Below are positions 19,475 through 51,992 of a DNA stretch of 64,000 nt, piece by piece. The translations under genes and the position numbers were made by a program. Positions within the stretch are counted from its first letter, which is position 1, and every line of letters starts with the position of its first letter. Source of the stretch: a virus; IMG/VR virus record IMGVR_UViG_3300025446_000004, positions 1-64,000 of that record. One strand, given 5' to 3'. Under the pieces are notes generated by a model. The model saw nothing but the letters and a program-made list of their open reading frames with translations. It searched no databases and was not told the DNA's origin.

Positions 19475-22438
19475 CTACCCCATCAAATCAGCAAACGGAT
19501 CAATGGATTCAGGCTCTTGCACAGCCTGTGCTTGTTCAACTTGAAAAGCCGTCCGTGGGTTATCGTCAGCCGCCATATTACTACTCAAATACGAATATTT
19601 TCCAGTACAGTAAACCAAATCCGAAAGCTCAGCCTCTCTCTGGTGGGCGGCATAATCTACGTTGGTTACTTCTAACCTACTACCCATATCCGCATACGCG
19701 CTAAACTGACTAACCAGTAATGACAATGCATCCACTATGTCATCATGAACGTCATCGCTAGTGCCGGTAAACTGCTCCATCTCGTTATAGATTTCTTCCA
19801 ACCCTTCGCAGGATTTAGAAAAATATAGTCGCTCATCCCCCAACAAACGAAGCACTGGTTTTGCTTTCAGTTGCTTTGATTTCGCCTTAGTACCTAACCC
19901 AAGCGACACGAACTCAACAGGAATGGAAATCTGTAGCTTCTGCATTTCCCGTCGCAACTCGGGACTAATCCACTTCACGCCCACAGAGTTTTCGATACAT
20001 ATCCTCTTAGGCTTCCACTTCAAACCAATAGCCGCGATCACAGACGGCAACTCATACTCATTAAACCGTCCCCTGACCATATTCAAGATGTAAAACCTAC
20101 CCCCATAAATCAGGGCAGTAATAATCACAGTGTAATCTGCCCATGACTTCAAAGAATACGCAGCATCTACTACCGATACAATCACTCCCTGTTGAGGAAG
20201 TTGTATCTGTGGAATTGTACGGCGCATCAAAAGTTCACGTGGAAACTTTATCTTATGCACCTGACGCGGATCATTGAGATACTTGATTGGAAAAACATCG
20301 GGGTCTTGTTCCTTCAAACCCATCAATGTATCATATGACAGAAGTTCAGGAAACCAAATAACCCAATCACTTGCTACTGTCTCTTCCTCAATCTTACCTA
20401 GTCGTTTGGCTTCATCTGTGAGCCAAAGCGCAGCACGAAGGTGTACCTTTGCCAAAACCGCACTATCAAATTGCCCGCTGTCAATAGAACCACGTATGTT
20501 GCCTTGCAAACCATGTCTTTCTGCACTTGAAATCTCTTTGGAAATCATCTGGCCGTAATAATCGTGCTCATCATACCACGTACCAATAACATCCAGAAAA
20601 CCATACGGATGCATTAGAGCTTTATTGATGCCTATTTGCCTGTTAACTTTTGCAAGTCGATCAAGGGTCAAACTGTTTTCGTTTGTAACCACGTCATCCA
20701 ACTTCATCACACAGTTATGTGTAACTGCACCAACTATGCAAATTGTTTCGTCCTCTTCTATCTGAACAGAAATAACAGAACCCACACCAACACGGTCTAC
20801 ACTTTCAACAATAGATGTGTCGCTTCCGTTTCTTGGGTTAGTTGGTTTTCCTTCATATAGTCCTACATTTCCCCATACACGCAAAGTATGATTCTCTTTA
20901 ACGGCCACGCTGCAAGACTGTTGCAAACCGAGTTTTTGCTTTATCATTAAAGCACCGGCAGCTATTTCATCTGATATGGTTGTCAGGCTACCACGGTCAT
21001 CTCCATCACCAGACCACATCCCACGAACAAGGGCCATCAATAATTCCCTTGGAGAATTTATTAACCATGCCGGTATATTTTTCCTGCATGGCCCAACATA
21101 CATTGACCGAAAAACATCAGTAAAAACTTTTGGTGCCTTTCGTATATAAAGAACAATCCCTCTATCACAAACCTGCTTTATTCTATAACTATCTGCTCCA
21201 TATGCAACAAAAAGTTTTCCTAAATTTTCAAAAACCTCAGTTTCATCGATATTGCCTGAAAATTGAACCTGATTATTACGAATAGAACCTTCTGCAATAA
21301 ACCAACCAAACATATTATAAACAGATTCTAACTGCGGTATAGGGGATGAGGGAGATTCATTTACAACAGGTCTCATAATTTTTGTTCCAATTACTAGATT
21401 TTCAGCATCTTCCCAACCCTGGTCTGTCAAAAACGGGTGGTCAACCGAACAAGTAACCGGGAACGCTCCAATCTTCTTAAACGTGATTGTTACTCTATCT
21501 GATAATCTTTCTTTTAATGCAACAACCCTCCTGTACCTTCCTTTATGAGTAAGAACTTTGTCTCCAATTTGAAAGTTCTTAACTTGCTTTACACCATCCT
21601 CGGTATAGACCCAAGTATCTGGAGAAAGACAATAGTGCGCACCAGACAAAGCTTGTTCAATAGATGCCGACCGTACTGACGGTTCCCTTATCTCACCAGC
21701 AGCAGCGGTTTGAAACTCTGTTTGAATACCTTCACCGGGAGGAATACAGTGTTCAGGAAACAAAACTTGAAAAATACTGGTCTCTTTATCTCCCGTAACG
21801 CGGTCCAAAACCTTACATGGCCTATAAATAGGCTTTTTTGTGGTTTCGTCTATGCTCCCGCTATCTTCCATCATAAAGTGCGCTCTAAGCTCCGAAATAA
21901 AATCAGTAGCGAGCTTGAACACTCCGGTCATAATGGCTATAGTTATCTCTGGATAGCAAACAATCCACTGTACACAATCAGCAATGTCAATAGAACTCTT
22001 AAATCCACCACGAGGAACCAAAAGCAAGCGACTTTTCAGGTCACCGTAACCATCTGCAAACGCACGAAACGTAGGAAGAGTGGGGTCTTTCTGCACAAAA
22101 AAACTATTGCATATATACTCATGTGCGCCTAACGTAACCTGACCGTATATAACCAACAACTTGCACATGAAATATAAATTAGTCTGCGCCAAAAAGCGCA
22201 GTCTCATCATTTCCCCGGTCGCATTAACCTGTTCCGCATGGTCACCAGATTCAGAAAGAAATTTATGCCAACTATCAAAAACTGCACACTGTTGTTCGTC
22301 TGATAACCTCTGGAAACTACGAACAGAAAGCTGCATGAATTCGCCGTCAGGTTCATTATCGTCATGAAGCCGATAATACTGATAGTGTTCATTCGCACGA
22401 CACTCTGCCGCTACCCGCCTAAGCTCCTCCAAGTTCAT
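19475..22438 (-). CDS. terL: Large terminase subunit with intein
   Basis: The reading frame gives 987 residues, of which 270-575 are an intein, leaving a 681-residue terminase. The ATPase Walker A is LLLVPRGGFKSS (about 138-149). Walker B is KLDDVV (579-584), right after the intein junction. The nuclease domain shows D758 (VVDAAYS), E816 (CIENS) and the HDDIVDAL acids near 899-903. The enzyme packages DNA through the adjacent portal. The intein sits at the ATPase core, where imprecise loss would destroy function. Confidence 0.9.
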   Translation of the reverse strand: MNLEELRRVAAECRANEHYQYYRLHDDNEPDGEFMQLSVRSFQRLSDEQQCAVFDSWHKFLSESGDHAEQVNATGEMMRLRFLAQTNLYFMCKLLVIYGQVTLGAHEYICNSFFVQKDPTLPTFRAFADGYGDLKSRLLLVPRGGFKSSIDIADCVQWIVCYPEITIAIMTGVFKLATDFISELRAHFMMEDSGSIDETTKKPIYRPCKVLDRVTGDKETSIFQVLFPEHCIPPGEGIQTEFQTAAAGEIREPSVRSASIEQALSGAHYCLSPDTWVYTEDGVKQVKNFQIGDKVLTHKGRYRRVVALKERLSDRVTITFKKIGAFPVTCSVDHPFLTDQGWEDAENLVIGTKIMRPVVNESPSSPIPQLESVYNMFGWFIAEGSIRNNQVQFSGNIDETEVFENLGKLFVAYGADSYRIKQVCDRGIVLYIRKAPKVFTDVFRSMYVGPCRKNIPAWLINSPRELLMALVRGMWSGDGDDRGSLTTISDEIAAGALMIKQKLGLQQSCSVAVKENHTLRVWGNVGLYEGKPTNPRNGSDTSIVESVDRVGVGSVISVQIEEDETICIVGAVTHNCVMKLDDVVTNENSLTLDRLAKVNRQIGINKALMHPYGFLDVIGTWYDEHDYYGQMISKEISSAERHGLQGNIRGSIDSGQFDSAVLAKVHLRAALWLTDEAKRLGKIEEETVASDWVIWFPELLSYDTLMGLKEQDPDVFPIKYLNDPRQVHKIKFPRELLMRRTIPQIQLPQQGVIVSVVDAAYSLKSWADYTVIITALIYGGRFYILNMVRGRFNEYELPSVIAAIGLKWKPKRICIENSVGVKWISPELRREMQKLQISIPVEFVSLGLGTKAKSKQLKAKPVLRLLGDERLYFSKSCEGLEEIYNEMEQFTGTSDDVHDDIVDALSLLVSQFSAYADMGSRLEVTNVDYAAHQREAELSDLVYCTGKYSYLSSNMAADDNPRTAFQVEQAQAVQEPESIDPFADLMG
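20714..21631 (-). mobile_element. Intein with LAGLIDADG-type endonuclease domain in terL
   Basis: The element is 306 residues (270-575 of the frame). Block A is CLSPDTWVYTEDG; block B contains TCSVDHPFLT; the two endonuclease motifs are FGWFIAEGSI and LVRGMWSGDGDD; the C-terminal blocks are ETICIVGAV and THN followed by Cys+1. All splicing residues (Cys1, the His of block B, the terminal His-Asn, Cys+1) are present, so splicing and homing activity are likely. It interrupts the stretch HYC-VMKLDD, which becomes the Walker B region. Confidence 0.9.
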
Positions 22439-32301: not shown

Positions 32302-32316
32302 CGATGGAAAACCAAG

Positions 32317-32417
32317 AGGGTGTAGCTCAGATGGTGAGAGCACCCGACATGTTTCAGCCTTAAGGTAGACCAAAGGCACGTGCCGGGAGGCCGCAGGTTC
32401 GATTCCTGTCACCCCTT
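32317..32417 (+). tRNA. tRNA-like gene with aberrant, elongated anticodon arm
   Basis: The D arm (TAGCTCAG ... GAGC), an AGGCC variable loop and the T arm (GCAGG TTCGATT CCTGT) are standard. The acceptor pairs imperfectly (GAGGGTG against CACCCCT). In place of a 17-base anticodon arm there is a long rod: CCCGACATG pairs with CGTGCCGGG (one A-C mismatch), and GCCTT pairs with AAGGC further in, leaving a 35-base loop in the normal arm. No anticodon can be assigned, U33 is absent, and CCA is not encoded. It may be a decayed tRNA, a tRNA with an insertion, or a tRNA-like regulatory RNA. Confidence 0.6.
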
Positions 32418-42818: not shown

Positions 42819-43748
42819 ATGGCTGAAAGCAACATTCAGACAATAACATTCAACGATGTAAGCGGGTTATCATCTCAAGTGATGTTTTTACAATTGCGGG
42901 CCGGTTTACTCGGGAACTCTCGAAAAATGGGAGGCGATATTTTCAACACTCCGGGAACCGATGTTGCATGGTTATCCGCAAACAAAAAACTCCTTGAGTC
43001 ACCGCAATTGGACGCGATACGCAAAGCAGACATGCGCATACGTCAGTGGTTATATAACTCAAAGGGACCAGCGTTACCTTGCAGCTTTGATGCGTTTACA
43101 ATTCCTAATGGTTCCGTTGTTTCAGTACGGAACAAGCTTGAGGAATTTAAAACGGAACGGGCCGGGTTGGTTGATGAATTCATGGCGGTGTACGTGGAAC
43201 AATCAAGGGAAGCAAGGGAAAAACTCGGCCCGCAATGGAATCCACACGAGTACTTGACCCCCGAACGTGTTCGAGCGAAATTTTACTTTGAGTATTCCTT
43301 TTATGGTTTCGGAGTCTCCGAAACACTTAAAGAAATTTCGCAAGAACTCTACGATGAACAAAAAAACAAAATCGAATCGGATTTTCGCAATGCAGCGGAC
43401 GAGATCACCGCAGTGATGCGGGAAACTGCTTTCGGGTTACTGCAAAACTTGCAAGAACAATTGACCCCGGACGATACCACGGGCAAAGCTAAAAAACTTC
43501 ATCCGGCGGCCCTTGCGAACGTTAAAAACTTTCTTGAAAGTTTCAGCATCAAGAATGTTACAAATGACAATGAACTCTCAAACATTCTCGCGCAAGTGAA
43601 AACACTGGTGACCGGGGTCGATACAAAAACCATTAAGGCCAGCGAGTCATTTAAAACAAACATGCGCGATAAACTCGCAGAGATTACCGGGAAACTTTCG
43701 ACCATGGTCGAGGAAAAATCGGGCCGCAAGTTTCTATTCGATGAGTGA
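42819..43748 (+). CDS. Island protein, possibly DUF3150-like
   Basis: The product is 309 residues and largely helical, with long charged helices (KNKIESDFRNAADEITAVMR ... ILAQVKTLVTGVDTKTIKAS). It resembles helical proteins found beside MoxR or Ycf46-type ATPases in phages, but the family call is weak. It has a GAAAAGGAAGG start site. It may be the substrate or scaffold of the ATPase; this is inference from order. Confidence 0.5.
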   Translation: MAESNIQTITFNDVSGLSSQVMFLQLRAGLLGNSRKMGGDIFNTPGTDVAWLSANKKLLESPQLDAIRKADMRIRQWLYNSKGPALPCSFDAFTIPNGSVVSVRNKLEEFKTERAGLVDEFMAVYVEQSREAREKLGPQWNPHEYLTPERVRAKFYFEYSFYGFGVSETLKEISQELYDEQKNKIESDFRNAADEITAVMRETAFGLLQNLQEQLTPDDTTGKAKKLHPAALANVKNFLESFSIKNVTNDNELSNILAQVKTLVTGVDTKTIKASESFKTNMRDKLAEITGKLSTMVEEKSGRKFLFDE

Positions 43749-43814
43749 CAGAACCGGGCCGGGCAACCGGCCCACGGTTCCTTAACACGTTTTTTCAAGA
43801 AAGGAAAAAACCAA

Positions 43815-44480
43815 ATGATTGGAATTACGAAAACTGAACTACAAACCCTGTTTGATGCGATCAAAATTCAAGACAAATTTGACCGCAAAGAGTTTGTGCA
43901 TCTTCTTGTATTGTGCCGTTTGGCGATGCGAACCGGAACAGAAAAGCAATTGTTCGCAGCAGTCGAAGACGTAAACTGGGAACTCGGAATCGAGCAATCG
44001 GAACCGGCGCCCCCGGAACATGATCCACTCGAAAACATGATCGGGAATACGTTACGTGACTATCGGGCCGCCGGTTTACCTAATCCGGTTGAGCCAAGAA
44101 TCCACGAGGTAACCCCGGCAGTACCGGACCCAGCTCCGGAACCTGTGCCAGCTTCGGAACCCGATCTCAATCCCGCAATCACGGAAGCTTTGAACAGTAT
44201 GCGGGGAGAGTCGATCACCCTAGCAGATGGTATCGCCGTTTCGTTTCTTGGAACCGGCCCGATTCCTCTTGGGGTTGCATTGGACGTGGAACCGCGCATT
44301 GAACAATCGGCAAACTATCCTCGCATTATGCGCCGTTTACAAATCGCGCAAGAATTACTCTCAGGTTACTGTCACCAGTACCGCGAAACCGGAACTTTTA
44401 CTCCGGAATATGTCGGGCAAACGTTCCGGGAAAAATGTATTGCAATTCTGCGTTATGTAGTCAACTTGCTAAAAAACTAG
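43815..44480 (+). CDS. Island protein, unknown, Pro/Glu-rich middle
   Basis: The product is 221 residues. Helical ends enclose a Pro/Glu-rich central linker (VPDPAPEPVPASEPDLNPAI). It has an AAGAAAGGAAAAAACCAA start site. It is the last gene of the island and is followed by a strong terminator. No family is recognised. Confidence 0.55.
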   Translation: MIGITKTELQTLFDAIKIQDKFDRKEFVHLLVLCRLAMRTGTEKQLFAAVEDVNWELGIEQSEPAPPEHDPLENMIGNTLRDYRAAGLPNPVEPRIHEVTPAVPDPAPEPVPASEPDLNPAITEALNSMRGESITLADGIAVSFLGTGPIPLGVALDVEPRIEQSANYPRIMRRLQIAQELLSGYCHQYRETGTFTPEYVGQTFREKCIAILRYVVNLLKN

Positions 44481-48167: not shown

Positions 48168-48908
48168 ATGTGCAATTTCGCATCATCCGTTATCACCGCT
48201 GACAGAGAATTTTTTCTGCCTACTGAGGATTCTCACAGTACTATTATTCGCCATTTCGGCCTACACGAATGGGGAACTCATGACCCAAACATCGTGAAGG
48301 TTGAAATTACTCCCAATAAAAATATGACCGTGTTCCCAAGTTTGGACACATGGACATATCGTGTGGATCAGGATAAGTTTCCTGAATGGCATACTGCCAA
48401 TCCAGCGGACACTGAGAGACGCGCAAGAGCGGCACTTAAGCTGCGTGCCAAACGTGGATTCAAGGTTGTCGAGTTGAATGGAACTGACAAACTTGTATCG
48501 CTTACTCTTCCAAAAAGAATCGCACGGTTAAACGTTAACGGGGCGCGGCTCCTCAAGAGTGTTGTAGCTCCGGGTGCCAAACAGGTGTCCCTCTACGGCG
48601 TGCCGAATCTGGAAAAACTTACCGTACCAAATGCCACAAAGTATGTGAGTATCGTAAGTTCGAAAAAGTTAACCAAACTGGCACTCCCTAAAGCCGATAC
48701 TGTCGAAGCCAGAGGTAACCCTAACCTACAGTATTTGTCTGCTGCGGTTGCCAACTGTGTTGATGCCCGAAACAATAAAAATCTCGCCAAAATCTATGCG
48801 CCAAAGGCAACGCGAGTGTATGTGACTGGTTGCCTGAAGAACGTCAAGATCAAGGCGAAAAAGGGCGCGTCCATTTATCGTGGGACTGGCACCGCATATG
48901 CCAAGTAA
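48168..48908 (+). CDS. MCKFAS-type protein with LRR-like solenoid
   Basis: The product is 246 residues. The N-terminal domain (MCNFASSVITADREFF ... LHEWGTHDPNIVKVEITP ... TYRVDQDKFPEW) is shared with the 50,941 product. The C-terminal part is a repetitive solenoid (VVAPGAKQVSLYGVPNLEKL ... ) ending LKNVKIKAKKGASIYRG. Such proteins are common in phages and usually carry varying numbers of repeats; their role is unknown. It has a GAAAGGAGC start site. Confidence 0.65.
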   Translation: MCNFASSVITADREFFLPTEDSHSTIIRHFGLHEWGTHDPNIVKVEITPNKNMTVFPSLDTWTYRVDQDKFPEWHTANPADTERRARAALKLRAKRGFKVVELNGTDKLVSLTLPKRIARLNVNGARLLKSVVAPGAKQVSLYGVPNLEKLTVPNATKYVSIVSSKKLTKLALPKADTVEARGNPNLQYLSAAVANCVDARNNKNLAKIYAPKATRVYVTGCLKNVKIKAKKGASIYRGTGTAYAK

Positions 48909-49322: not shown

Positions 49323-49541
49323 ATGGTAAAATCAAGCAAACCCGAAAAGAAACTTAGGCGTACTGGCCCAAGATTCTTTTTTGTATTTGATTTTAATTTA
49401 CAATGGTTAGCCCCTAAGTTTTCATATGGACAGAAACTTGGATATATTCATATGGGGTGGTTATCGTTGATGTTTGGATTCGGCATAGCACGGGATACTT
49501 TTTTTGATACACTCGATAAAGGGCTCTGGGGCGCATTGTGA
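49323..49541 (+). CDS. Small, partly hydrophobic protein, unknown
   Basis: ATG at 49,323 gives 72 residues; a basic start (MVKSSKPEKKLRRTGPRFFF) and one hydrophobic stretch (MGWLSLMFGFGIA) suggest membrane association. No ribosome site is seen; see the promoter entry. The stop overlaps the next start (GTGA). Confidence 0.5.
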   Translation: MVKSSKPEKKLRRTGPRFFFVFDFNLQWLAPKFSYGQKLGYIHMGWLSLMFGFGIARDTFFDTLDKGLWGAL

Positions 49542-50179
49542 ATAGAGCGAAATCAAACCGAGTGGTAAGGCTCATGAACAAGTGGTGGGCCGCAACGAAG
49601 AAAGCTGACGCTATCAAGCGTCAACTGAATGCCCAAATGATTACACAGCCAAACATGGGCAACGGTGTGCCGTGTACCGTCCACTATTCAGCGGGTGATG
49701 AAGGGCAGCCATGGGTACACCCGTCATGGGGAAGCCGCCCAGAGCCGCCAGCACCGGAGAAGTTTGATATAAAGTTTAACGAAGAGACGGCACATCGGGC
49801 AAAAATTATCACGGACAACCTGAAATCTTTACAGGCGAAACTCGAAGGGTTGTCCAATGGTACTTTACGTCCTAACAAGGGTGTTTTCAAAGACTTAACA
49901 AATAGCGTTGAGTCTGCCCGGATGCAAATCGAGAACAACATTCCTTACATCCAACAGTGCGCTGCTGAGGAACTGGAAAAAAAGGTAGGGGCAGCCGTAA
50001 TGGAATTTGAGGCGTACATGACTCGAAGCTGTGAAGCTAGAGGGTTAGCAGCGATGCGCTCCGGGGCACCTGTATTGGCCCTACAAGCGTCTACTGGCCC
50101 GGATAGGGTCGATGTACCCCAACTGACAGATGGCGCGTCTGAAGACGAATCTGAGCCACTAGAAGGGCATGGGGTATAA
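49538..50179 (+). CDS. Helical protein, unknown
   Basis: GTG at 49,538 overlaps the previous stop. The product is 213 residues and mostly helical, with a Pro-rich segment (SWGSRPEPPAPEKFDIKFNE), a long coiled coil and an acidic C-terminus. No family is recognised. Confidence 0.55.
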   Translation: MNRAKSNRVVRLMNKWWAATKKADAIKRQLNAQMITQPNMGNGVPCTVHYSAGDEGQPWVHPSWGSRPEPPAPEKFDIKFNEETAHRAKIITDNLKSLQAKLEGLSNGTLRPNKGVFKDLTNSVESARMQIENNIPYIQQCAAEELEKKVGAAVMEFEAYMTRSCEARGLAAMRSGAPVLALQASTGPDRVDVPQLTDGASEDESEPLEGHGV

Positions 50180-50180
50180 T

Positions 50181-50531
50181 ATGGAAATCACCAAGCTACA
50201 AAGTGGATTTGCTCAGCATGTATCTCATATTGAGCGCGATAATGAGATACATGCCCAATATTATTCAACCATGTTCGAGCAGTTTGTTGATATAAATATA
50301 TTACATAAACCAGAACGCGATATGGGTACAGCGCAGAAAGCCATAGAAGAATACAAAAAACAGTATCCATCGCAGATAAGGTTTCGCATTGTTTTGACCG
50401 ATAAATCCAGTATGGTCATTGATGTAACGTATCCGAAGGAAACAACTGGTACAGTTTGTCCACATTACCATCGGGACGGTCACGTAGCCGGTTATTGCCC
50501 GGCCTTGACAAGAGAAGATCACATAGGATAA
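50181..50531 (+). CDS. Small protein with Cys/His cluster, unknown
   Basis: ATG at 50,181 gives 116 residues. The body is alpha/beta; the end holds CPHYHRDGHVAGYCPALTRE, a possible metal site. The tmRNA promoter lies inside its last codons. Confidence 0.5.
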   Translation: MEITKLQSGFAQHVSHIERDNEIHAQYYSTMFEQFVDINILHKPERDMGTAQKAIEEYKKQYPSQIRFRIVLTDKSSMVIDVTYPKETTGTVCPHYHRDGHVAGYCPALTREDHIG

Positions 50532-50534
50532 AGT
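50505..50534 (+). promoter_or_regulatory. Promoter of the tmRNA gene
   Basis: TTGACA (50,505-50,510), 18 bases, then TAAAGT (50,529-50,534). The expected start near 50,541 is just before the first hairpin of the tmRNA precursor. Confidence 0.65.
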
Positions 50535-50540
50535 AGAGTC

Positions 50541-50912
50541 ATGGTCCCGGTACCTGTATCTACCGGGTGGTGGAGGGCCGTTGGGTGCCCCTCGTAGCAG
50601 TCAGTCGTAAGGCTGCTACGTTTTAAGCATGTAGAAAGGTGCGGAATACAATTTCGGACACGGGTTCGACTCCCGTCGCTTCCACCATAAAAATATATGG
50701 GAGCGTCACGGTTTCGACGGAATTGAAACATGCAAGCTAGTTCATGCCGGGATTGGTGCTCACCGTGACGAGAACTAAACACAAACTGCCACACTGCGTG
50801 ACGGTTGGAATAGGCTTAAGGCGGCGTTCTTCGGAACGTTTGCGTTTAGTCCTGTTCTTGCGACTGCTTAACCGTAGTCAAGGGTTTCCCGTGTCCTTAA
50901 CCAATCACGGGA
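50541..50912 (+). ncRNA. ssrA: Circularly permuted tmRNA gene
   Basis: The 3' (acceptor) half comes first: AAGCATGTAG ... GAATACAATTTCGGAC, T arm ACGGG-TTCGACT-CCCGT, acceptor CGCTTCC, A, CCA ending at 50,687. After 11 bases (TAAAAATATAT) the 5' half begins: GGGAGCG (50,699) pairs with CGCTTCC to make a 7-bp acceptor stem, followed by the D-loop signature GGTTTCGACGG and CATGCCGGG, which pairs with GCATG of the first half. One possible tag frame starts with GCC at 50,788, the same distance from the 5' end as in E. coli, and ends ...SPVLATA TAA at 50,871; a shorter frame ends at a TGA near 50,798. A TCCCGTG/CACGGGA hairpin closes the gene. Confidence 0.9.
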
Positions 50913-50940: not shown

Positions 50941-51417
50941 ATGTGTAAGTTCGCAAGCTTTGTTCTAACAAAGGATCAAGAGTTTTATGACGAAACTGGA
51001 GATTTGCACAGCGAAATTATCTCTCAAAACAATCTTCACGAATGGGGAACTCATGGCCCAAACATCGTCAAGGTTGAAATCACTCCCGTTGACAAAATCA
51101 AAAAATGGCCATCGTTAAAAGCATGGGTATTTAAAATAGATCAAGACATTTTGCCGAATTGGGCTGACGCCGAAACTTGTGAAAAACGTACACGGGCAGC
51201 GTTAGCGAGAAGAAGCAAAAAAGGTTTCAAAACAGTGGACGCAAGGGGTTGCACAGCTTTGACGGAACTCAAGGCGGGCGCAGCTACGTATGTGGACGCA
51301 AGGGGTTGCACAGCTTTGACGGAACTCAAGGCGGACGCAGCTACGTCTGTGGACGCAAGAGGTTGCAATACAAATCTTAAGATCAAAGCTAAAAAAGGTG
51401 CAACAATTTATCGCTAA
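50941..51417 (+). CDS. MCKFAS-type protein with 19-residue repeats
   Basis: The product is 158 residues, sharing its N-terminal domain (LHEWGTHGPNIVKVEITP) and C-terminal KIKAKKGATIYR with the 48,168 gene. The middle holds two complete repeats and one partial repeat of VDARGCTALTELKAxAATx, encoded by near-identical 57-bp DNA units. It starts right after the tmRNA, with an AGGAGGAATATC site. Confidence 0.7.
   Translation: MCKFASFVLTKDQEFYDETGDLHSEIISQNNLHEWGTHGPNIVKVEITPVDKIKKWPSLKAWVFKIDQDILPNWADAETCEKRTRAALARRSKKGFKTVDARGCTALTELKAGAATYVDARGCTALTELKADAATSVDARGCNTNLKIKAKKGATIYR
51235..51368. repeat. 57-bp tandem coding repeat
   Basis: Units at 51,235-51,291 and 51,292-51,348 differ at two positions, and a third partial unit follows. 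Near-identity at DNA level implies recent slippage-type expansion, so copy number is expected to vary among relatives. Confidence 0.9.
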
Positions 51418-51443
51418 TGCTACCTTAATTGAGGATATACTTG

Positions 51444-51992
51444 ATCGTGAAATATTTAACCATTGACGAGCTACAACGACTATTGGCAGCGGTGGATAAT
51501 CCACGCCATAAGTTGATGCTCAAGGTTGCGTTTCTTCACGGTCTCAGGGTCTCGGAGTTGATCGGGCTTACCACTAAAAATATACAGGGAGACTATTTGA
51601 CAGTACAACGACTCAAAGGGTCTCGTAAAACATCGCAACCGCTGGCCGGTGATCCGGACCAACCGTTATTTAATGAGGTTGTAGAGCTAAATGAGTTGGT
51701 ACTCAAGCTAAACCCCGGAGATCGGTTGTTTCCCATAACCCGCTTTGGAGTCTATAACCTCATTCGCAGAGCCGGAAAGAAAGCCGGGATAAACGAGACG
51801 AAATTGTTCCCACACGCGCTTAAGCATTCGATTGCAATGAGTGCGATCAATACGTCGGGTATTCAATTCGTTAGGCAATGGCTAGGGCACAAGTCAATTG
51901 CTAGCACCGGCTACTATTTGGAAGCAACAGATGACGAAGCGGCTAAATCGATTTATAGGGCGCTGCATGTAGCCGGGGAGACAAAGCTATGA
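51444..51992 (+). CDS. Tyrosine recombinase, catalytic domain only
   Basis: GTG at 51,444 gives 182 residues. HGLRVSELIGL carries the first Arg, FPHALKHSIAM the HxxK-type second box, and GHKSIASTGYYLE the His and the Tyr nucleophile. The HxLKHS variant occurs in a phage integrase subgroup. The N-terminal arm-binding domain is absent, as in small recombinases of the Xer/invertase kind. It may resolve dimers, invert DNA or integrate; its closeness to the tmRNA gene, a frequent attachment site, is suggestive. Confidence 0.8.
   Translation: MVKYLTIDELQRLLAAVDNPRHKLMLKVAFLHGLRVSELIGLTTKNIQGDYLTVQRLKGSRKTSQPLAGDPDQPLFNEVVELNELVLKLNPGDRLFPITRFGVYNLIRRAGKKAGINETKLFPHALKHSIAMSAINTSGIQFVRQWLGHKSIASTGYYLEATDDEAAKSIYRALHVAGETKL

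What the first reader, a model, noticed from the sequence alone, without database searches (positions are those of the whole stretch)
50541..50912. Circularly permuted tmRNA gene in a phage, with an 11-base spacer
The acceptor half (T arm and CCA) precedes the half with the 5' end, D-loop signature and tag region, and the two pair into a 7-bp acceptor stem and a CATGC/GCATG helix. The halves are split only by TAAAAATATAT. A sigma70-like promoter lies just upstream. Phage-borne permuted tmRNA would re-route stalled host ribosomes with a phage-chosen tag. The apparent tag (possibly ending VLATA) is not a standard one, and which frame is used is open.
Basis: partly seen in the sequence, partly recalled or inferred. 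Interest (0 to 1): 0.88.

Follow-up and report, generated by a model that had tools for sequence, protein, structure and literature searches.

The report
Two-piece tmRNA gene in soil phage
A soil virus, probably of Acidobacteria, carries its own rearranged (two-piece) copy of the bacterial RNA that frees stuck ribosomes, with a tag about three times longer than that of Acidobacteriaceae bacteria, whose own version is one-piece; such phage genes were already known, but not, in the papers I could search, from phages of this bacterial group.

Summary
Rfam's permuted-tmRNA model matches window 50627-50819 (79.2 bits, cut-off 47, E 1.6e-13). The 3' half (T arm, CCA) precedes the 5' half across an 11-nt spacer. 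The helices joining the halves (acceptor stem 7/7, P2) covary across related phage genes (97% of cells paired, 0/500 shuffles); the G3-U70 alanine determinant is invariant. The tag frame can be settled: resume codon GCC at 50788, tag ATLRDGWNRLKAAFFGTFAFSPVLATA (27 aa). Phage-borne two-piece tmRNA is already published (Melnitz and about 50 other phage genes), so the kind is known. New, as far as the tools show: the phage's nearest isolated relatives are Tunturiibacter (Acidobacteriota) phages; three of five isolates carry a permuted tmRNA not reported in their paper, with 29-34-aa tags. In 120 Acidobacteriaceae genomes the tmRNA is one-piece (103 over cut-off, none permuted), with 9-10-aa tags in the 20 read. 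So phage and host gene forms differ. Whether the phage form is an independent permutation is open: TLD and resume codon look host-like, the 3' tail looks like other permuted genes, and an AU test cannot decide. Function (trans-translation with host SmpB) is inferred, not shown.

The parts
50627..50687 (+). Acceptor piece of tmRNA: P2 3' strands, T arm, 3' acceptor strand, encoded CCA (5' end of the mature piece not determined)
   Evidence: RF04321 alignment; covarying helices
50688..50698 (+). Intervening spacer TAAAAATATAT between the two halves
   Evidence: sequence; other phage genes have spacers of 5-35 nt within the searched range, Tunturi_4 154 nt
50699..50787 (+). Start of coding piece: 5' acceptor strand, D-loop signature, P2 5' strands, P3/PK1 region, single-stranded run before the resume codon
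   Evidence: RF04321 alignment; alignment with relatives
50627..50631 (+). P2 outer helix, strand 1 (GCATG)
   Evidence: pairs with 50743-50747; 100% paired, two pairs with double changes in six phages
50743..50747 (+). P2 outer helix, strand 2 (CATGC)
   Evidence: as above
50788..50871 (+). Tag reading frame, GCC resume codon to TAA: ATLRDGWNRLKAAFFGTFAFSPVLATA
   Evidence: same ..AACT|GCC context in L033, Tunturi_4 and Tunturi_5; GCC resume codon in Acidobacteriaceae one-piece genes
50888..50911 (+). 3' tail hairpin CCCGTG-TCCTTAACCAAT-CACGGG closing the coding piece; resembles the stem-CCUUGnnACnnAA-stem tail of other permuted tmRNAs
   Evidence: sequence and fold; motif in other permuted genes; the motif scan did not itself pick out this hairpin, the match is by eye
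50593..50620 (+). 10-bp hairpin just upstream of the acceptor piece, possibly part of the precursor leader; read by ARAGORN as half of a tRNA-Leu
   Evidence: folds, ARAGORN
50505..50534 (+). sigma70-like promoter string, not above chance

Best explanation
A working two-piece tmRNA gene carried by a tailed phage that most likely infects Acidobacteriaceae. One transcript is made; host tRNA-processing enzymes remove the 11-nt spacer and leave an acceptor piece and a coding piece held together by the acceptor stem and P2. Host alanyl-tRNA synthetase charges it (G3-U70 present), host SmpB takes it into ribosomes stalled during infection, and translation resumes at GCC to add a 27-residue tag and end at a proper stop codon. 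Shown: gene structure, covariation, conservation in other phages, no SmpB found in the phage. Inferred: host, processing, charging, tagging and its benefit (recycling ribosomes stalled when host and phage mRNAs are cut, with a tag that differs from the host's).
For: RF04321 79.2 bits, E 1.6e-13. Covariation across six phage genes, 0/500 shuffles, invariant G3-U70. Open tags of 23-34 aa in all seven genes of the set, four sharing the AACT|GCC context. TerL 46% and DNA polymerase 51% identical to Tunturi_3, polymerase 40% to Tunturi_4. Permuted tmRNA over cut-off in Tunturi_3, Tunturi_4 and Tunturi_5. No SmpB found in the phages; an RF-1/GGQ rescue-factor-like gene in Tunturi_3 and Tunturi_4, in the latter ending directly upstream of the tmRNA.
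Against: No expression data. The window tag ends LATA rather than the usual ALAA-like end. Position -5 before the resume codon is A, which in E. coli (U85A) lowers activity and raises -1 frame use (PMC2481249). 27 open codons alone are unremarkable (chance about 0.29). The host of this phage is inferred from relatives 46-51% identical. No RF-1 gene was found in this record.
Confidence: 0.8

Rival explanations
1. The RNA is a decoy: its tRNA-like part ties up host SmpB or competes with host tmRNA, and the tag matters little, as proposed for the TLD-only form of mycobacteriophage DS6A.
For: No SmpB found in the phage, so it must compete for the host's; DS6A precedent (PMC4131195, PMC11915505); host relatives have their own one-piece tmRNA.
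Against: Resume context and open tag kept in seven phage genes, with a shared tag motif AKVLxF in three of them; DS6A lacks a tag altogether.
Confidence: 0.12
2. Remnants of host ssrA picked up at an attachment site of the integrase at 51429-51992.
For: A tyrosine recombinase (PF00589) lies about 500 bp downstream; tmRNA genes are common integration sites.
Against: Both halves complete and covarying across phages; sampled host relatives have one-piece genes, so an attP fragment would not hold a permuted order; differences from the host in the acceptor and T stems keep the pairs.
Confidence: 0.03
3. False permuted hit: a tRNA gene followed by the 5' half of a one-piece tmRNA.
For: This artefact is real: 13 of 396 Acidobacteriota genomes score over the RF04321 cut-off; ARAGORN finds a one-piece tmRNA in 12 of the 13 loci, with a tRNA-Asp beside it in 11. 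ARAGORN calls a tRNA-Leu at 50593-50687.
Against: The putative tRNA-Leu acceptor pairs at only 4 of 7 positions while the tmRNA acceptor pairs at 7 of 7 (read); P2 joins the two halves and covaries; no tmRNA 3' half lies downstream.
Confidence: 0.02
4. The tag is read in another frame, from an upstream resume codon: ACA AAC TGC CAC ACT GCG TGA = TNCHTA, behind a canonical UAAAC.
For: UAAAC|ACAAAC resembles the usual UAAAU|GCAAAC; A at -4 is present for both candidates.
Against: L033, Tunturi_4 and Tunturi_5 share the ..AACT|GCC context and open long frames, L004 and L052 have GCC at the same place, and Acidobacteriaceae hosts resume at GCC.
Confidence: 0.12

Closest known systems
Two-piece tmRNA of marine phages (Methylophilales phage Melnitz and others; PMC9004378)
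   Same: Complete permuted ssrA in a tailed phage, tag encoded.
   Different: Melnitz infects a bacterium of a lineage with two-piece tmRNA; here the inferred host family has one-piece tmRNA. No riboswitch was found by Rfam in the window.
Permuted tmRNA of Alpha-, Betaproteobacteria and Cyanobacteria (RF01849, RF01850, RF01851, merged in RF04321)
   Same: Gene order, spacer, TLD helices, 3' tail hairpin with a CCUUGnnAC-like loop.
   Different: P2 and P3 carry the CATGCCGGG form of one-piece genes instead of GGCAACCCG; resume codon GCC with AACU before it; tag 27 aa.
One-piece tmRNA of Acidobacteriaceae (RF00023)
   Same: TLD core 89% identical, nearer than any other permuted gene compared (80%); GACGGAATTG, CATGCCGGG, GCC resume codon.
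   Different: Not permuted; tags of 9-10 aa in the 20 genes read.
One-piece tmRNA of mycobacteriophages (Bxz1, Wildcat) and Bacillus phage G; TLD-only form of DS6A (PMC4131195)
   Same: Phage-borne ssrA.
   Different: Those are one-piece or tagless.

Membership tests
tmRNA, permuted (RF04321) | Covariance-model match over curated cut-off | tested here: met
   79.2 bits against 47
tmRNA, permuted (RF04321) | 3' half upstream of 5' half with a short spacer; acceptor stem formed across the spacer | tested here: met
   7/7 pairs, covarying in relatives
tmRNA, permuted (RF04321) | G3-U70 alanine identity pair and CCA end | tested here: met
   U-G at columns 65/74 in 6/6; CCACCA encoded
tmRNA, permuted (RF04321) | Long P2 helix linking TLD to the coding region, no anticodon arm | tested here: met
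   outer P2 100% paired with double changes; inner P2 87%
tmRNA, permuted (RF04321) | Tag frame with A at -4 of the resume codon, ending in a stop | tested here: met
   GCC at 50788, A at -4, TAA at 50869; same place in relatives
tmRNA, permuted (RF04321) | PK1 between TLD and resume codon | tested here: inconclusive
   possible UUGGU/ACUAA pseudoknot by eye only; not tested by covariation
tmRNA, permuted (RF04321) | Mature RNA in two pieces, charged with alanine, works with SmpB | not testable with these tools
   needs RNA and biochemistry
Betaproteobacterial permuted tmRNA (RF01850) | Score over its cut-off | tested here: not met
   51.1 bits against 84
One-piece tmRNA (RF00023) | 5' half upstream of 3' half in one gene | tested here: not met
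   no 3' half downstream
Phage attachment-site remnant | Only a fragment identical to the host gene, next to an integrase | tested here: not met
   both halves present, pair-keeping differences from host relatives

The most novel reading that the evidence does not exclude
Phages of Acidobacteriota made their two-piece tmRNA by an independent circular permutation of their hosts' one-piece gene, a further origin beside the alpha, beta, cyanobacterial and mitochondrial ones, and replaced the short host tag with a long phage tag.
Probability: 0.2. Interest if true: 0.75.

Novelty: new variant of a known kind. Interest (0 to 1): 0.5.

Why it matters
It puts two-piece tmRNA into phages whose sampled host family has only the one-piece form, so phage and host RNAs can be told apart by length and by tag in the same infected cell. 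Culturable pairs exist (Tunturi phages 3, 4 and 5 on Tunturiibacter), which makes the open question of what a phage gains from its own tmRNA directly testable. The long tags (23-34 aa against 9-10 aa in the host genes read) and, in Tunturi_4, a rescue-factor-like gene abutting the tmRNA suggest a phage ribosome-rescue cassette. It also shows a pitfall: RF04321 gives over-cut-off hits where a tRNA gene precedes a one-piece tmRNA.

Tried and rejected
blastn of the gene against 50,697 phage records: no match. A first pattern scan of viral contigs gave three further loci (L003, L005, L006) with no permuted-tmRNA match over the Rfam cut-off. Phages related through the downstream gene (L008-L010) have no tmRNA in the records held. 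Near relatives by DNA polymerase (L143, 100% identical; L144, 53%) are fragments without this region. Genome pattern scan for GGGAGCGT-type permuted genes: none. Another viral pattern for GGCTTCGAC-type genes: none. No viral relative was found of the ORF at 49538-50179. Independent permutation was tested by tree: the best tree puts the phage genes with one-piece genes (support 78/54), but holding all permuted genes together costs only 1.4 log units, p-AU 0.46; not shown. In the first tree Tunturi_3's gene fell apart from the other phage genes, on a very long branch; it and two other long rows were left out of the test. My first structure string had one helix out of register; corrected. The 2004 paper on two-piece lineages was not held.

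Full report
Check of the observation. The sequence shows the order described: T arm and CCA (to 50687), spacer TAAAAATATAT (50688-50698), then GGGAGCG and the D-loop signature. Rfam's permuted-tmRNA model matches 50627-50819 with 79.2 bits, E 1.6e-13 for the window, against a cut-off of 47. The older betaproteobacterial model scores 51 bits, below its own cut-off. ARAGORN does not call a tmRNA, only a tRNA-Leu over the acceptor piece; that tRNA's acceptor pairs at 4 of 7 positions, the tmRNA's at 7 of 7 (read).

More than chance. Related genes were found by pattern in viral contigs and by model in isolated phages. On an alignment of the window gene with L004, L033, L052, Tunturi_4 and Tunturi_5, the acceptor stem, T stem and outer P2 are 100% paired, inner P2 87%; 10 of 23 pairs have changes on both sides; covariation 0.487 against 0.157 in shuffles, 0 of 500 as high; slid structures pair at 34-52%. 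An alignment with Tunturi_3 in place of Tunturi_5 gives the same picture (92% paired). The third acceptor pair is G-U in all of them, the alanine determinant (established knowledge of AlaRS).

The phage. The record has 89,756 bases, linear. TerL (with an intein-like insert) and DNA polymerase are nearest to Tunturiibacter phage Tunturi_3 (46% and 51%); polymerase is 40% identical to Tunturi_4. The integrase is also nearest to Tunturi_3, 37%. A host in the Acidobacteriaceae is therefore likely, not shown.

The same gene in isolates. Permuted tmRNA over the Rfam cut-off lies in Tunturi_3 (88172-88396, minus), Tunturi_4 (43532-43941, minus) and Tunturi_5 (157899-158195, minus), not in Tunturi_1 and Tunturi_2. 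The feature tables of the stretches around the gene in Tunturi_3 and Tunturi_4 list no such gene; Tunturi_5's table there was not opened. The paper that describes these phages does not contain the word tmRNA. Tunturi_3 and Tunturi_4 also carry a short RF-1-domain protein with GGQ; in Tunturi_4 its stop codon lies about 5 bases before the tmRNA match. No such protein was found in the window's record. No SmpB was found in ten phage records including the window's, Tunturi_3 and Tunturi_4.

The host form. In 120 genomes of the family of a Terriglobus MAG (reached through a Granulicella plasmid protein), one-piece tmRNA is over the cut-off in 103 and permuted tmRNA in none. Completeness values are not shown for these genomes, and the 17 without a one-piece call are unexplained. 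In a phylum-wide draw of 396 genomes, 13 pass the permuted cut-off. ARAGORN finds a one-piece tmRNA in 12 of those 13 loci, 11 of these with tRNA-Asp (and tRNA-Val) beside it, one (L126) without a tRNA call, and none in the thirteenth (L132), which has the same tRNA pair. A tRNA followed by a one-piece tmRNA imitates a permuted gene, so I read most of these as false; L126 and L132 I did not resolve.

The tag. Host tags read by ARAGORN in 20 Acidobacteriaceae loci are 9-10 aa (ANTNQLAYAA, ANNNLALAA and the like); in the phylum-wide loci most are 8-9 aa, while two long calls there (L130, L135) look like misreadings. Phage tags: Tunturi_4 ANTVTSTIRNVASVRTGFFRSAEPITNRYAVAA (33), L033 ANTVVSFARKAKVLAFPAMRPVNAGTVGLAMAA (33), L052 ATEGVNGTKIYTYPVKVRELVLA (23), all also called by ARAGORN; L004 ATSSVSAKTAKVLAFPARPAALQMAA (26), Tunturi_3 VNKIDRSVVAVVPASRKVRVAQFATMLAA (29) and Tunturi_5 AKNSPVVRGTAKVLSFARKFVPAVSSTRAFAMAA (34), translated by me. 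Tunturi_5, L033 and L004 share AKVLxF. By the same alignment the window's resume codon is GCC at 50788 and its tag ATLRDGWNRLKAAFFGTFAFSPVLATA. The context AACT|GCC is identical in the window, L033, Tunturi_4 and Tunturi_5. The rival frame TNCHTA is disfavoured. Long tags also occur in other viral permuted genes, such as L055 with 30 aa, so length alone is not special to this group. Work on E. coli tmRNA found A at -4 (A86) to matter most (PMC2481249); it is A here.

Origin. TLD core identity is highest to Acidobacteriaceae one-piece genes (89%) and 80% to the nearest permuted gene; P2/P3 carry the one-piece form CATGCCGGG. Against this, the 3' tail hairpin with a CCUUGnnACnnAA-like loop occurs in most permuted genes scanned and was not found in eight Acidobacteriota one-piece genes; in the window gene I recognise it by eye only. 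The best tree places the phage genes beside one-piece genes with weak support, and the AU test does not reject one permuted group, p 0.46. The host-like TLD may reflect adaptation to host SmpB and AlaRS. Independent permutation stays a possibility.

What is known. Two-piece tmRNA in phages was reported in 2022: 53 of 133 distinct phage tmRNA genes, mostly marine or aquatic (PMC9004378). The 2025 tmRNA database paper covers RefSeq viruses to October 2023 and describes RF04321 (PMC11915505). I found no paper in the library on tmRNA of Acidobacteriota phages; the library is partial.

Judgement. The gene is real and very probably a functional two-piece tmRNA. It is a new variant of a known kind: known in form, new in its host setting and tags. 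Function in infection is untested.

Noticed in passing
Tunturi_3 PP885686 88172-88396 (-); Tunturi_4 PP885687 43532-43941 (-); Tunturi_5 PP885688 157899-158195 (-): Permuted tmRNA genes in isolated Acidobacteriota phages; for Tunturi_3 and Tunturi_4 the annotation tables of the stretch list none (Tunturi_5's table at that place was not opened).
   Followed up: yes
PP885687 43946-44293 (-), PP885686 82469-82807 (-): Short RF-1-domain GGQ proteins (rescue-factor-like); the Tunturi_4 one ends directly before the tmRNA acceptor piece.
   Followed up: partly
L124-L136: Over-cut-off RF04321 hits in Acidobacteriota genomes where, in most loci, a tRNA-Asp gene lies next to a one-piece tmRNA: an artefact to watch for; L126 and L132 unresolved.
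   Followed up: partly
window 32316-32417: tRNA-like gene (RF00005, 44 bits) with about 37 bases in place of the usual 9 in the anticodon region, not called by ARAGORN.
   Followed up: partly
window 19475-22438 (-): Terminase large subunit interrupted by an intein-like Hint domain (below Pfam's cut-off).
   Followed up: no
window 50941-51417 and 48168-48908: Two related proteins starting MCxFAS flank the tmRNA region; the first carries tandem repeats of VDARGCTALTELKA type; no Pfam or PHROGs match for the first, no Pfam match for the second.
   Followed up: no
window 51429-51992: Short tyrosine recombinase (PF00589) about 500 bp downstream of the tmRNA.
   Followed up: partly
L048, L053: Viral permuted tmRNA whose tag, read from the GCG resume codon, seems to end ELVNVS, not a usual degron; ARAGORN calls another frame.
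   Followed up: no
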